A stretch of DNA of 64,000 nt from Geothrix terrae (GTDB taxonomy: Bacteria; Acidobacteriota; Holophagae; Holophagales; Holophagaceae). How positions within the stretch are numbered: the first letter of the stretch is position 1; every line of letters begins with the position of its first letter. The position numbers and the translations under genes were made by a program. Below, piece by piece: positions 19,434 through 29,100 of this stretch. Location of the stretch: positions 496,001 to 560,000 of the forward strand of contig NZ_JAKZLA010000002.1 of NCBI RefSeq assembly GCF_022808775.1, given 5' to 3'. The notes under the pieces are model-generated. The model was not told the origin of the DNA. It saw only the letters and a program-made list of their open reading frames with translations, and made no database searches.

Positions 19434-19515
19434 AGGTGGGAAAAGCCTTTCGTGGTCTGCTGATAGTCCGCTCGGCGTTGATCAGGGACGCGGGGCGATG
19501 ACGGAGGGCGTCGCC

Positions 19516-21270
19516 ATGGCACGCATCGAACGGGAGTGGCAGGCGGAGCAGGAGGGCGCAGCCCTGGCTTCGGAACTGCACAAGGTGATGGTCATCAGCC
19601 ACCGGCAGGCCAAGGGCTTCATCGACGGCCGCTGTGTGACGGTGAACGGCGAGATCGCCGAGAAGCACGGCCACCGGCTCAAGGCGGGCGACGCCGTGAA
19701 GGTGGTGTTCGATCCCGAGCTCACCTACGAAGTACTGCCACCGCCGAAGAAGCTGAGCTCCGGCCCTTACGAGACCCTGTGGGAGGACAACCACCTGCTC
19801 TTCGTCTTCAAGCCCGCGGGCCTGCTGACGGTGCCGGCTGAACAAGGTGGAGAGCCCAGCCTGGCGGAGGCCATCACCGAGTCCTACCGCCGCCGTGGCT
19901 TCAAGCGCTTCAACCTCTTCATCGTCCACCGGCTCGACCGCTTCACCAGCGGGGTGCTGGTCTTCGCCAAGACCCCCGAAGCCCTGCACGGCCTCAAGAA
20001 GCACTTCGAGCTGCACCGCCTCCAGCGCGTCTACTTCGCCGTCCTCGTGGGCGAGCTGCCTGAGAACAGCGGCACCCTGGCGGGCCACCTCATCGAGCAC
20101 GCCAAGTCCCTGAAGATGTCCGTGGCCAAGGTCCGCAAGGGCCCCGGTGGCGGCAAGCGCATGCCCGCCGGCGCCAAGGAGGCCGTCACCCACTACCGCG
20201 TGATCGAGCGGCTTCCCGGCCACACCGTCGTGGAAGTGCGCCTGGAGACGGGCCGCCGCAACCAGATCCGCGTGCAGTTCGCGGATCGCGGCTTCCCCCT
20301 GCTGGGCGACCAGGTCTACGGCACTGAGAGCCCCCTGCTGGACCGCCAGGCCCTGCATGCCGAGCTGCTGGGCTTCAAGCATCCCGTCACCGAGGAGCAG
20401 GTCACGGTGACGGCCCCCATGCCCGCAGACATGGAGGCGGCCCTCAAGGCCCTCCGGAATTCCGCCCGCCTGCAGCGCGCCGCCACGGGCGCCAAGGGCG
20501 AGGAGGGCATCTTCCAGCCCACCGAGAGCCGCGACCACAAGCTCAAGCGCGTGGCCCGCGCCAAGCGGTTCGATGAACGGGAAGCGCCCGCCCGCCCCCG
20601 CCCCATCAATGGCGATGAGCGGCCCCGCCGGGCCTTCGACACCACCGAGCGTCCGGCCCGTCCGCGGCGCGACGACAGCGACGAGCGACCCCGCCGCCCC
20701 TTTACCCCCGGCGACCGTCCGACCCGGCCCCGCCGCGAGGAAGGGGATGAACGCCCCCGCCGCAGCTTCGGCTCCACCGAGCGGCCCGCCCGCCCGCGGC
20801 GCGACGACAGCGATGAGCGGCCCCGCCGCCCCTTCACCCCCGGCGACCGCCCGGCCCGGCCCCGCCGTGACGAGGGCGACGAACGTCCCCGCCGTGCCTT
20901 CGGCTCCACCGAACGCCCCGCCCGTCCGCGCCGTGACGAAGGTGACGAGCGGCCCCGCCGTCCCTTCACCCCCGGCGACCGCCCGGCCCGGCCCCGCCGT
21001 GACGGGGGGGACGAACGTCCCCGCCGCGCCTTCGGCTCCACCGAGCGCCCCGCCCGCCCGCGCCGTGACGAAGGTGACGAGCGGCCCCGCCGGCCCTTCA
21101 CCCCTGGCGACCGCCCGGCCCGGCCCCGCCGCGAGGAGGGTGACGAGCGCCCGCGGCGCAGCTACGACGCCACCAGCCGCCCCGCAGGCCCGCGCCGCGA
21201 AGGCCCCGGCGGACGTCCCGCAGGCAAGCCCGGCCCGCGCACCGGGAAACCCAAGCCCCGGAAATCCTGA
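19516..21270 (+). CDS. RluA-family RNA pseudouridine synthase with repetitive Arg/Pro-rich tail
   Basis: A 584-residue protein. Residues about 15-75 form an S4-like RNA-binding domain (HRQAKGFIDGRCVTVNGEI). Residues 90-300 are the RluA catalytic domain: FIVHRLDRFTSGVLVFAK with the catalytic Asp in HRLDR, and ETGRRNQIRVQFADRGFPLL. After about residue 310 comes a disordered tail; residues 367-564 are nine consecutive 22-residue units of two alternating types. Normal family members end near residue 300-330. The ATG at 19516 follows GGAGGG; an ATG at 19498 is an alternative. The tail probably binds rRNA or DNA non-specifically. Confidence 0.9.
   Translation: MARIEREWQAEQEGAALASELHKVMVISHRQAKGFIDGRCVTVNGEIAEKHGHRLKAGDAVKVVFDPELTYEVLPPPKKLSSGPYETLWEDNHLLFVFKPAGLLTVPAEQGGEPSLAEAITESYRRRGFKRFNLFIVHRLDRFTSGVLVFAKTPEALHGLKKHFELHRLQRVYFAVLVGELPENSGTLAGHLIEHAKSLKMSVAKVRKGPGGGKRMPAGAKEAVTHYRVIERLPGHTVVEVRLETGRRNQIRVQFADRGFPLLGDQVYGTESPLLDRQALHAELLGFKHPVTEEQVTVTAPMPADMEAALKALRNSARLQRAATGAKGEEGIFQPTESRDHKLKRVARAKRFDEREAPARPRPINGDERPRRAFDTTERPARPRRDDSDERPRRPFTPGDRPTRPRREEGDERPRRSFGSTERPARPRRDDSDERPRRPFTPGDRPARPRRDEGDERPRRAFGSTERPARPRRDEGDERPRRPFTPGDRPARPRRDGGDERPRRAFGSTERPARPRRDEGDERPRRPFTPGDRPARPRREEGDERPRRSYDATSRPAGPRREGPGGRPAGKPGPRTGKPKPRKS
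20614..21207 (+). repeat. nine in-frame 66 bp repeats in the pseudouridine synthase tail
   Basis: Nine 66 bp units encode DERPRR-x2-(STERPARPRR or PGDRPARPRR)-x3. Type A (AFGSTERPARPRR) and type B (PFTPGDRPARPRR) alternate, so the higher-order period is 132 bp. The units are diverged at synonymous sites but conserved in protein, apart from the last copy (SYDATSRPAGPRR). The block ends 63 bp before the stop. Confidence 0.93.
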
Positions 21271-26101: not shown

Positions 26102-29100
26102 ATGCTGCGTATCAACCAACTCGCCAAAGAGCTCGGAGTCGCCAACCAGGAGGTCATCGAGGCCTGCGAGAAGCGTCTGGGCCTCCAAGGGAAGAGCCAC
26201 AGCTCCAACCTCACCGATGACCAGGCGGACCAGCTGCGCCGGGCCTTCCAGGGCAAGCACAAGGGGGAGAGCGACGCGCCCCCCCTCGCGCTGCACAAGC
26301 CCTCCGCCGCCGTGAAGGTGGTGAAGGGGCCCGCTCCGGCCTCCCCCCGTCCCGAGCCCAAGGTCGAGACCCCGGTCGAGGTCCCCAAGGCCGCGCCCGC
26401 CGTGCTGGTGAAGAAGGCCGAGCCCAAGCCTGAAGCCCGGCCCGAGCCCCAGCCCGAACCGAGCCCCGAGCCGCAGGCGTCGGCCCCCGCGGCCATGCCC
26501 GCATCCCAGGCGAAGCCGGCCGAACCCACCCCGACTCCGGCGCCCGCTGCGGCCGCGTCCGCAGCCCCGGCCGCCACGGCCCCGGCCGCATCGCCGGCCG
26601 CGGTTGAGGCGCCGGCGCCAACCCCGGCGGCGGAAGCCCCCAAGGAGACCTTCTCCCGCCTGAAGGTGTCCACGGGAGCCGCGCCCGCCCCCCGCGAGGA
26701 GAAGCCCGCCCGCTACATCCAGCTCCCGCCGACCCGGCCCGCGGGCGCCCCGGCGGCCCAGCGCCCGGCTCAGCCCTCCACGGCCCAGGGCTCCGGTCCC
26801 CGCCCCGAAGCGGGCGCCCGGCCCATCGTCCAGCGACCCGGCCAGGCCCCCGCCCCCCGGGACGTCCAGCGCTCCGGCATGCCCCAGAAGGAGAAGGCCG
26901 TTCTCCAGATGGCCACCAACACGGGTCGCGGCGAGGTGCGCCACGACGCTCCCGCCCCGGCGGCCCCCAGCCGGCGTCCCTACATTCCGCCCGCCATCAC
27001 CGAGCTGCGACCGGACCAGGGCTTCAGCCGCATCAAGACCTCGGACACCCCGGCCCCCACGCCGCGGCCCCAGGAACCCGCCCGCTACATCCAGCTGCCC
27101 CAGCCCCGCCCTGCCGGCGGCGCCCGCCCCAGCGGCCCCGGCGGTCGTCCGGGCGGTCCTGGCAGCCGTCCCGGCGGCCCCGGCCGTCCCGGCATGGGTT
27201 CCCGGCCCGGCGGCCCCGGCCGTCCCGGCATGGGCCCCCGTCCCGGCGGCCCCGGCCGCGGTCCCTCCATCCCGGCCTCCGGTCCCATCGATCCCAACAG
27301 CCAGAAGGGCCCCGGCCGCGGCGCCCACGTGGGCGGCAAGAAGAAGAAGGGCGGCTACGTCCGGAGCAAGGAGGAGGAACTCGACCTCAAGCTCCGCCAG
27401 CCGCGCTCCCGCGCCCAGCAGGTGGCCAGCGAGTACATCGAGGAGGAGATCGGCATCGTCATGCTCTCCGAGGGCGTGACGGTCAAGGAACTCGCCGAGA
27501 AGTGCAACCGGCCCGCCAAGGATGTGGTCGCCAAGCTGCTCCACCGGGGCATCTTCGCCACCATCAACCAGCCCCTCGACACCGAGATGGCCAAGGACAT
27601 CGCCCGCGAGTTCGGCTACCTGGCCGACATCGTCTCCTTCGAGGAGGACGTGCAGATCGCCGCGGACGAATCCGGCGAGGTGGCGGGCGAGAAGCTGTCC
27701 CGTCCCCCGGTCGTCACCATCATGGGCCACGTCGACCACGGCAAGACCTCGCTGCTGGACGCCATCCGCAAGACCAAGGTGGCGGCCGGCGAGGCTGGCG
27801 GCATCACGCAGCACGTGGGCGCCTACCACGTGGCCGTGAAGGATCCGAACACCGGCGAGAAGCGCAAGGTGGTCTTCCTCGACACGCCGGGCCACGAGGC
27901 CTTCACCAAGATGCGCGCCCGCGGCGCCAAGGTCACGGACATCGCCGTCCTGGTGGTGGCCGCCGATGACGGCGTCATGCCCCAGACCGTGGAGTCCATC
28001 AACCACGCCAAGGCCGCGGACGTCCCCCTGGTGGTCGCCATCAACAAGATCGACAAGCCCGGCGCCAACCCGGACAAGGTCCAGCAGGGCCTGCTCCAGT
28101 ACGGCGTCCAGACCGAGGCCTACGGCGGCGACGTGCCGGCCGTCCTCGTCAGCGCCAAGACCCAGCAGGGCCTCGACGAGCTGCTCGAGACGCTGCTCCT
28201 CGTGGCCGACCTGAAGGAGCTGAAGGCCGTCTACGATTGCCCCGCCGCCGGGTCCATCATCGAAGGCCGCCTGGACCGGGGCCGCGGCCCCGTGGCCACG
28301 GTGCTCGTGCAGCGCGGCACCCTGCGGGCCGGCGACATCTTCGTGGCCGGCGCCACCATGGGCCGCGTCCGCGCCATGTTCGACTACCTGGGCCAGCGTG
28401 TCACCGAGGCCGAGCCGTCCACCGCCGTGCAGATCCTCGGCTTCGAGGAAGTGCCCAGCGCCGGCGACAACTTCCAGGTGGTGGAGGACGAGGGCAAGGC
28501 CCGCACCATCGTCTCCTTCCGCCAGGAGAAGGCCAAGCAGGCGGCCCAGCAGAAGCAGCGCGCCACGCTGGAAACCCTGTTCAGCACCCTCAAGGATGGC
28601 CAGGTCAAGGAGCTGCCCCTCATCATCAAGGCGGACACCCAGGGTTCCGTGGAATCCCTCGTGGGCCAGCTGGAGCGCCTCAGCACCGAGAAGGTCCGGG
28701 TGCGCATCATCCACAGCGCCGCCGGCACCGTCACCGAGAACGACGTGCTCCTCGCCGAAGCCTCCAAGGCCACCATCATCGGCTTCCAGACCCGGGCCGA
28801 GAAGAAGACCGAGGAGCTCGCCCACGAGGAGGGCGTGGACCTGCGCTTCCACGACATCATCTACAAGGTCACGGAAGAGGTCGAGCAGGCCATGGTCGGC
28901 ATGCTGGACGCCACCGAGAAGGAGACCGTCCACGGCCAGGCCGAGGTGCGCCAGCTCTTCAAGATCGGCAAGACCGTCATCGCCGGCTCCTTCGTCACCG
29001 AGGGCAAGGTCCAGAAGTCGAACAAAGTCCGCGTGAAGCGCGGCGAGGAGGTCCTCTTCGAGGGCGGCATCAAGAACCTCAAGCGCTTCAAGGAGGACGT

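What the first reader, a model, noticed from the sequence alone, without database searches (positions are those of the whole stretch)
20614..21207. Alternating two-type 22-residue repeat array on a pseudouridine synthase
Nine units (A/B alternation, 44-residue super-repeat) extend an RluA enzyme by nearly 200 residues. Synonymous divergence with conserved protein indicates selection for the Arg/Pro/Asp pattern. The DERPRR charge blocks could drive RNA condensation or ribosome tethering.
Basis: partly seen in the sequence, partly recalled or inferred. Interest (0 to 1): 0.55.

Follow-up and report, generated by a model that had tools for sequence, protein, structure and literature searches.

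The report
Charged repeat tail on pseudouridine synthase
A bacterial RNA-modifying enzyme of the Geothrix group carries a long, floppy, arginine-rich tail made of short repeats; its length and repeats change fast while its charge pattern is kept by selection, so it probably helps hold the enzyme on ribosomal RNA.

Summary
The tail is not a local oddity. All 55 complete Holophagaceae genes read carry a basic, charged tail (54-366 residues). In the window's genus it is a tandem array whose length differs between near-identical enzymes (254, 259, 281, 332 residues) and whose period differs between lineages. Composition is held: 48% charged residues, net charge +0.11 per residue. Differences between repeat copies are mostly synonymous; charge-altering changes are about nine-fold below expectation, and the two other sense frames lack this pattern. 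The tail is predicted disordered. The three other RluA-type enzymes of the genome lack it, though its RluB/RsuA-type enzyme has a basic N-terminal extension; 21 homologues outside the family have no Arg-rich repeat tail. Best reading: an electrostatic RNA or pre-ribosome tether, working like the Lys/Glu tail of eukaryotic Cbf5 but Arg-based and of separate origin. Selection is shown; RNA binding, condensation and the rRNA target are inferred. Charges are not unusually blocky. New variant of a known kind.

The parts
19498..21270 (+). RluA-family pseudouridine synthase with C-terminal repeat tail, 590 aa (an in-frame ATG at 19516 is an alternative start)
19588..19698 (+). S4 RNA-binding domain (residues 31-67)
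   Evidence: Pfam PF01479, 25.9 bits against cut-off 22.8
19792..20283 (+). PseudoU_synth_2 catalytic domain (residues 99-262); HRLD at residues 144-147, of which H144, R145 and D147 are invariant in 36 aligned sequences
   Evidence: PF00849 105.8 bits; alignment A1
20491..20580 (+). basic linker, residues 332-361, alike across most of the family (about GEEGIFxPxxxxxxKxxRxxRAxRF), with a predicted helix 345-360
   Evidence: read-out of 55 complete tails, L090 being the clear exception; model
20614..21207 (+). array of nine 22-residue units, A/B alternation, 198 residues, predicted disordered
21208..21267 (+). basic C-terminal cap, residues 571-590 (GGRPAGKPGPRTGKPKPRKS), its last residues alike in most of the genus

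Best explanation
The tail is an intrinsically disordered, Arg-based strong polyampholyte that acts as a low-specificity electrostatic tether. Many weak Arg-phosphate contacts hold the synthase near nascent 23S rRNA or pre-50S particles so that the folded S4 + catalytic module finds its uridine(s) before the RNA folds; interspersed Asp/Glu keep the contacts reversible and may allow tail-tail contacts. Tandem duplication and loss change the number and period of repeats, while selection keeps composition and charge. Shown: the array, protein-level and charge-level selection, disorder (predicted), presence throughout the family, absence from the other three RluA-type paralogues. Inferred: RNA or ribosome binding, the rRNA target, any condensation.
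For: All 55 complete Holophagaceae genes of 65 read have a basic tail of 54-366 residues. Genus tails (32 complete): FCR 0.48 +- 0.034, net charge +0.113 +- 0.011 per residue, almost no ILVM (mean 0.7%), one Cys in all; 23 tails of other genera: FCR 0.40, net +0.17. Within-array codon differences in 15 of 32 arrays: synonymous 393 (expected 139), charge-keeping 97 (158), charge-changing 24 (217); of the nonsynonymous ones 80% keep charge where 42% is expected; frames +1 and +2 show fewer synonymous changes than expected. In the model the tail has block pLDDT 37-50 on a well-folded core, whose best solved matches are E. coli RluD and the RluD chain of a pre-50S-ObgE particle. The other three RluA-type enzymes of the genome lack the tail. 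Basic disordered-looking extensions sit on other RNA enzymes of the genome too: N-terminal on the RluB/RsuA-type synthase and C-terminal on two DEAD-box helicases. Parallel: the Cbf5 KKE/D tail is a strong polyampholyte needed for efficient rRNA pseudouridylation in yeast, and KKE/D peptides coacervate with RNA (PMC11528048, sections 6 and 8).
Against: No binding, localisation or modification data. Kappa does not differ from shuffles, so no special charge blocks are selected. About 20% of the residues are acidic, which would weaken plain RNA binding. The within-array counts are pairs of copies in related species, not independent events, and 17 of 32 arrays were too diverged for the filter. Homologues outside the family, and the paralogues, work without the tail.
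Confidence: 0.55

Rival explanations
1. The tail is a multivalent docking arm for a protein partner (for example an RNA helicase or ribosomal protein), like the disordered microdomain arm of RNase E, rather than an RNA tether.
For: Unit motifs (DERPRR-[AS]FGS-ERPARPRR, DERPRRPFTPGDRPARPRR) are kept in sequence, not only in charge, within many arrays of the genus.
Against: Units are replaced by others of different period (31, 34 in the genus; 13, 39 and more in other genera) while bulk charge stays; a specific docking motif should be kept.
Confidence: 0.2
2. Spacer or solubility tail: a disordered charged bristle that keeps the enzyme soluble or tunes its turnover, with no specific contact.
For: Bulk properties are what is conserved; the 21 homologues read from other families of the phylum do without an Arg-rich repeat tail.
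Against: Bias to Arg, net positive charge, and the conserved basic linker and cap are more than solubility needs.
Confidence: 0.15
3. A neutral GC-rich minisatellite that happens to be in frame.
For: High GC, strong variation of copy number and period.
Against: Excess of synonymous and deficit of charge-changing differences, in the sense frame only; presence throughout the family.
Confidence: 0.05
4. The DNA repeat or an overlapping antisense reading frame is what is selected.
For: Long antisense frames are open across the array; the antisense frame in register with the sense codons has no stop over the tail in 8 of 10 genes checked, the window's included.
Against: Sense third positions vary most; long open antisense frames are expected in GC-rich, codon-restricted DNA. 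That frame has a stop in 2 of 10; of the other two antisense frames one has a stop in 9 of 10 and one in 10 of 10.
Confidence: 0.03

Closest known systems
RluD and the RluA family of pseudouridine synthases (TIGR00005, PF00849, S4)
   Same: S4 + catalytic domain, HRLD motif; best solved matches 2ist and 7bl5 chain 7 (pre-50S-ObgE particle)
   Different: Adds a tail of 259 residues; scores 128.8 against the RluD equivalog cut-off 351; the genome has a better, tail-less RluD candidate, L003, with 193.8 bits, also under the cut-off
Lysine-rich KKE/D domains of eukaryotic snoRNPs (Cbf5, Nop56, Nop58, helicase Dbp3)
   Same: Disordered strong polyampholyte with net positive charge on a pseudouridine synthase; kappa within the 0.1-0.4 quoted for Cbf5; a DEAD-box helicase of the same genome also bears a mixed-charge tail
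   Different: Arg not Lys (window tail R 29%, K 2%); a stand-alone enzyme, not guide-RNA directed; regular 22-residue units rich in Pro; no homology claimed. The paper presents these domains as a feature of eukaryotic snoRNPs, absent from archaea
Disordered C-terminal arm of RNase E (BR-bodies, degradosome)
   Same: Disordered C-terminal region on a bacterial RNA enzyme, linked to condensates (starts of abstracts of PMC4435900 and PMC10412687 in the listing)
   Different: The RNase E arm binds RhlB, enolase and PNPase and is described by microdomains (same listing); here a near-uniform tandem array
GAR/RGG domains
   Same: Arg-rich, disordered, RNA-linked
   Different: No RGG triplet in the window tail and a high acidic content (sequence)

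Membership tests
RluA family pseudouridine synthase | TIGR00005 subfamily score | tested here: met
   194.4 bits against 192.7, only just over
RluA family pseudouridine synthase | catalytic domain with HRLD and catalytic Asp | tested here: met
   PF00849 105.8 bits; H144, R145, D147 invariant in 36 sequences; the role of this Asp is recalled
RluA family pseudouridine synthase | makes pseudouridine | not testable with these tools
   no biochemistry
RluD (23S 1911/1915/1917) | equivalog model NF008385 | tested here: not met
   128.8 of 351 bits; the paralogue L003 scores 193.8, also below
KKE/D-type polyampholyte tail | strong polyampholyte with positive net charge, kappa 0.1-0.4 | tested here: met
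   FCR 0.51, net +0.11 for the tail; kappa 0.174 for the array; kappa from my own short implementation
KKE/D-type polyampholyte tail | lysine doublets spaced by acidic residues | tested here: not met
   2% Lys, 29% Arg
KKE/D-type polyampholyte tail | RNA-dependent coacervation; needed for rRNA modification | not testable with these tools
   needs bench work
GAR/RGG domain | RGG repeats | tested here: not met
   no RGG in the printed tail

The most novel reading that the evidence does not exclude
Holophagaceae evolved, independently of eukaryotes, an Arg-based counterpart of the Cbf5 KKE/D domain: a selected polyampholyte tail that gathers a stand-alone pseudouridine synthase (and perhaps other RNA enzymes with basic extensions, such as the RluB/RsuA-type synthase and a DEAD-box helicase of the same genome) at nascent rRNA, a nucleolus-like logic in a bacterium.
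Probability: 0.2. Interest if true: 0.65.

Novelty: new variant of a known kind. Interest (0 to 1): 0.4.

Why it matters
It is a clean natural experiment in disordered-tail evolution: enzymes with 98-99% identical cores and tails of 254-332 residues, repeat periods that differ between lineages, and a charge budget that does not. If the tail acts as an rRNA tether, it would show that charged disordered tails on rRNA-modifying enzymes arose separately in bacteria and eukaryotes, and it makes the sequence-versus-charge question directly testable.

Tried and rejected
Neutral minisatellite: rejected by the in-frame selection test and its two frame controls. A first version of that test (20 of 32 arrays) chose windows by residue identity, which biases it towards conserved residues; it was replaced by one chosen by nucleotide identity (15 of 32 arrays, single-base codon differences only), which gave the same direction.

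Overlapping antisense gene: long antisense frames exist, but codon phase and relatives give no support.

Other genes with the same array: a tail search of the own genome at E <= 10 found this gene and one weak hit at E 1.7. In 297 phylum genomes the tail matched 19 at E <= 1e-6, all of this genus (21 genus genomes were in the sample; G032 and G047 gave none); each listed match lies in this gene, except one on a contig edge (G041:C30) whose host gene cannot be told. The DNA pattern for [DE]RPRR gives 92 sites in the own genome against 76 for the reversed control; the nine sites of this array are the only run of three or more close together. These searches go by sequence and would miss tails alike only in composition: a check of termini of named enzymes did find other basic extensions.

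'Tail on only one of five PF00849 enzymes' was my first reading from C-termini. Reading the whole frames corrected it: the RluB/RsuA-type enzyme L175 has about 100 basic, Arg/Pro/Ala/Ser-rich residues at its N-terminus, with few acidic residues.

Concerted evolution: best within-array identity is not clearly higher than best between-species identity (0.889 vs 0.916, 0.890 vs 0.904, 0.959 vs 0.952, 0.864 vs 0.854), so homogenisation within a genome is not shown. Charge blocks as the selected feature: not supported by kappa.

Literature on a tail of this kind on a bacterial RluA-family enzyme: none seen in the listings (open-access full text only, at most 20 rows per listing). Condensates at rRNA operons: listing only, not followed. 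That other phyla (for example Bacteroidota) carry Arg-rich extensions on rRNA pseudouridine synthases is my recollection and was not tested.

Full report
What is there. The window lies in a 3.43 Mb genome close to Geothrix: its enzyme core is 99% identical to that of Geothrix paludis SG195 and 98% to those of G. fermentans DSM 14018 and Geothrix sp. SG200. The gene at 19498-21270 + encodes 590 residues: S4 domain, PseudoU_synth_2 domain, TIGR00005 RluA family just over its cut-off. From residue 332 a tail of 259 residues follows: a basic linker with a predicted helix, the array of nine 22-residue units at 20614-21207, and a basic C-terminal cap.

Is it more than chance? Yes. Units start exactly every 66 bases; residue identity is 0.68 at lag 22 and 0.87 at lag 44, the largest of 5000 shuffles being 0.26 and 0.28. 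The two unit types differ mainly in the middle ([AS]F-x-x-x-E against PFTPGD).

Relatives. 69 of 77 genomes of the family have the enzyme at E <= 1e-60. I read 65 of these 69 genes (those of G016, G028, G035 and G044 were not read): 55 complete, 9 cut by contig ends, and 1 (L106) dropped because my read-out stopped after three codons, apparently at a TGA upstream of the true start. All 55 complete genes have a basic tail: 175-366 residues in 32 genes of the window's genus, 54-266 in 23 genes of other genera. By best self-match, the period in the genus is 44 or 22 in 24 of 32, 43 in five, 31 in L085 and L086, and 34 in L084; in other genera some show other periods (13, 14, 33, 39, 61) and many no clear repeat. 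The closest enzymes have tails of 259 (window), 332 (L006), 281 (L008) and 254 (L007) residues, with 9, 13, 10 and 8 motif starts; the count is rough, since one start in L006 belongs to a shortened unit and one unit of L007 starts with GDRPRR and is missed.

Outside the family. In the phylum sample of 297 genomes, 21 outside the family matched the core at E <= 1e-45; the six genomes of the same class but other families gave none at that threshold. All 21 were read. Counted from the end of the aligned core, 19 have at most 45 residues left (L130, with 45, is charged: R+K 29%, D+E 20%); L129 has 200 residues of lower charge (R+K 17%, D+E 14%) and L189 has 51. None has an Arg-rich repeat tail. 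Whether these are true orthologues was not tested by a tree.

The same genome. PF00849 hits five places. Three are RluA-type paralogues (L002, L003, L004 = L176, L172, L174) without a tail. The fifth (L175), by its sequence an RluB/RsuA-type enzyme (my reading), has no C-terminal tail but about 100 basic, Arg/Pro/Ala/Ser-rich residues at its N-terminus, with few acidic ones. Two DEAD-box helicases end in basic stretches: L178 in about 100 mixed-charge residues, L177 in about 40 Arg/Gly/Pro-rich ones. So the regular charged array is peculiar to this gene, but basic extensions on RNA enzymes are not; this fits an RNA-tether reading and weakens any claim of uniqueness.

Selection. Between units, dN/dS is 0.24 (A) and 0.10 (B). 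Across 15 arrays of 32 (those with DNA lag identity of at least 0.70; windows chosen by DNA identity), single-base codon differences between copies were synonymous 393, charge-keeping 97, charge-changing 24, against 139, 158 and 217 expected from the same codons with a transition bias of 2 and the tail's base composition, scaled to the same total. Among nonsynonymous ones alone, 80% keep charge (42% expected). Read in frames +1 and +2 the same stretches gave 63/355/105 (expected 157/263/104) and 38/273/135 (expected 150/174/123): no excess of synonymous change. These are pairwise counts in related species, so no P value is given. Composition is held: FCR 0.48 +- 0.034 and net charge +0.113 +- 0.011 per residue in 32 genus tails of 148-339 residues counted after a 27-residue linker. 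Against a 'block' reading, kappa is what composition gives (0.174; shuffles 0.162 +- 0.033); of eight relatives checked, five lie within one standard deviation of their shuffles and three (L086, L097, L099) lie below.

Structure. AlphaFold2 with 36 aligned sequences gives a mostly confident core and a helix at 345-360, then no structure, with block pLDDT 37-50 from residue 361 on. Foldseek against PDB puts E. coli RluD (2ist) first and the RluD chain of a pre-50S-ObgE particle (7bl5) second; sequence search also puts RluD first, then RluC and RluA. A large-subunit substrate is therefore a fair guess, but the RluD equivalog cut-off is not reached and a better RluD candidate (L003) exists in the genome.

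Setting. The gene lies between an M16 peptidase gene and a small gene without Pfam match, about 2.8 kb upstream of rimP-nusA. Of 32 named loci searched for the neighbours, 27 have an M16 match upstream (a 25% match in L066 is not counted; L057, L058, L059 and L063 have none; several loci are cut short). The nearness of ribosome maturation genes is suggestive only.

How it most likely works. A disordered Arg-based polyampholyte would make many weak, reversible contacts with rRNA phosphates, raising the local concentration of the catalytic module on nascent rRNA or pre-50S. The model for this is the KKE/D domain of yeast Cbf5, whose loss strongly lowers rRNA pseudouridylation; KKE/D peptides form salt-sensitive coacervates with RNA (PMC11528048: abstract and sections 6, 8 and 16 read). 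The same paper reports that loss of the Cbf5 domain does not affect activity of reconstituted particles in vitro, so a missing in vitro effect would not by itself refute a tether. In E. coli, several rRNA modification enzymes, RluC among them, also help large-subunit assembly (PMC11194073, abstract only). Every step after 'selected, charged, predicted disordered' is inference.

Novelty. The enzyme is an ordinary RluA-family member; the tail is a new variant of a known kind, the charged disordered tail on an RNA-modifying enzyme. Its merit is the evolutionary pattern: units turn over while charge stays.

Noticed in passing
L175 964-2016 (G000:C9, RluB/RsuA-type pseudouridine synthase): About 100 N-terminal residues rich in Arg, Pro, Ala and Ser with short repeats (ARPATGSARPTASARPATGSAR) and few acidic residues: a second synthase of this genome with a basic, probably disordered extension of another make.
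   Followed up: partly
L178 1336-3021 (G000:C10, DEAD-box helicase): A DEAD-box helicase of the same genome ends in about 100 residues rich in Arg, Lys, Pro, Asp and Glu (for example KPRPYQKPKPEADTRPRRTWEERP), a mixed-charge tail without obvious regular repeats. A second helicase (L177) ends in about 40 Arg/Gly/Pro-rich residues.
   Followed up: partly
window 26413-27295: Several short tandem repeats just downstream of nusA, where infB would be expected; probably coding for the N-terminal region of IF-2.
   Followed up: no
L085 and L086: The same tail is built of a unit of period 31 with 0.82-0.83 residue identity between copies, in place of the 22/44-residue unit; L086 matches the place of the gene in Geothrix rubra.
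   Followed up: partly
L104, L105 (genus g2 of the family): Small genomes (0.9-1.2 Mb) of the same family keep the enzyme with a short basic tail (77 residues in the two read), with less Arg and more Ile/Leu/Val/Met than in the window's genus.
   Followed up: no
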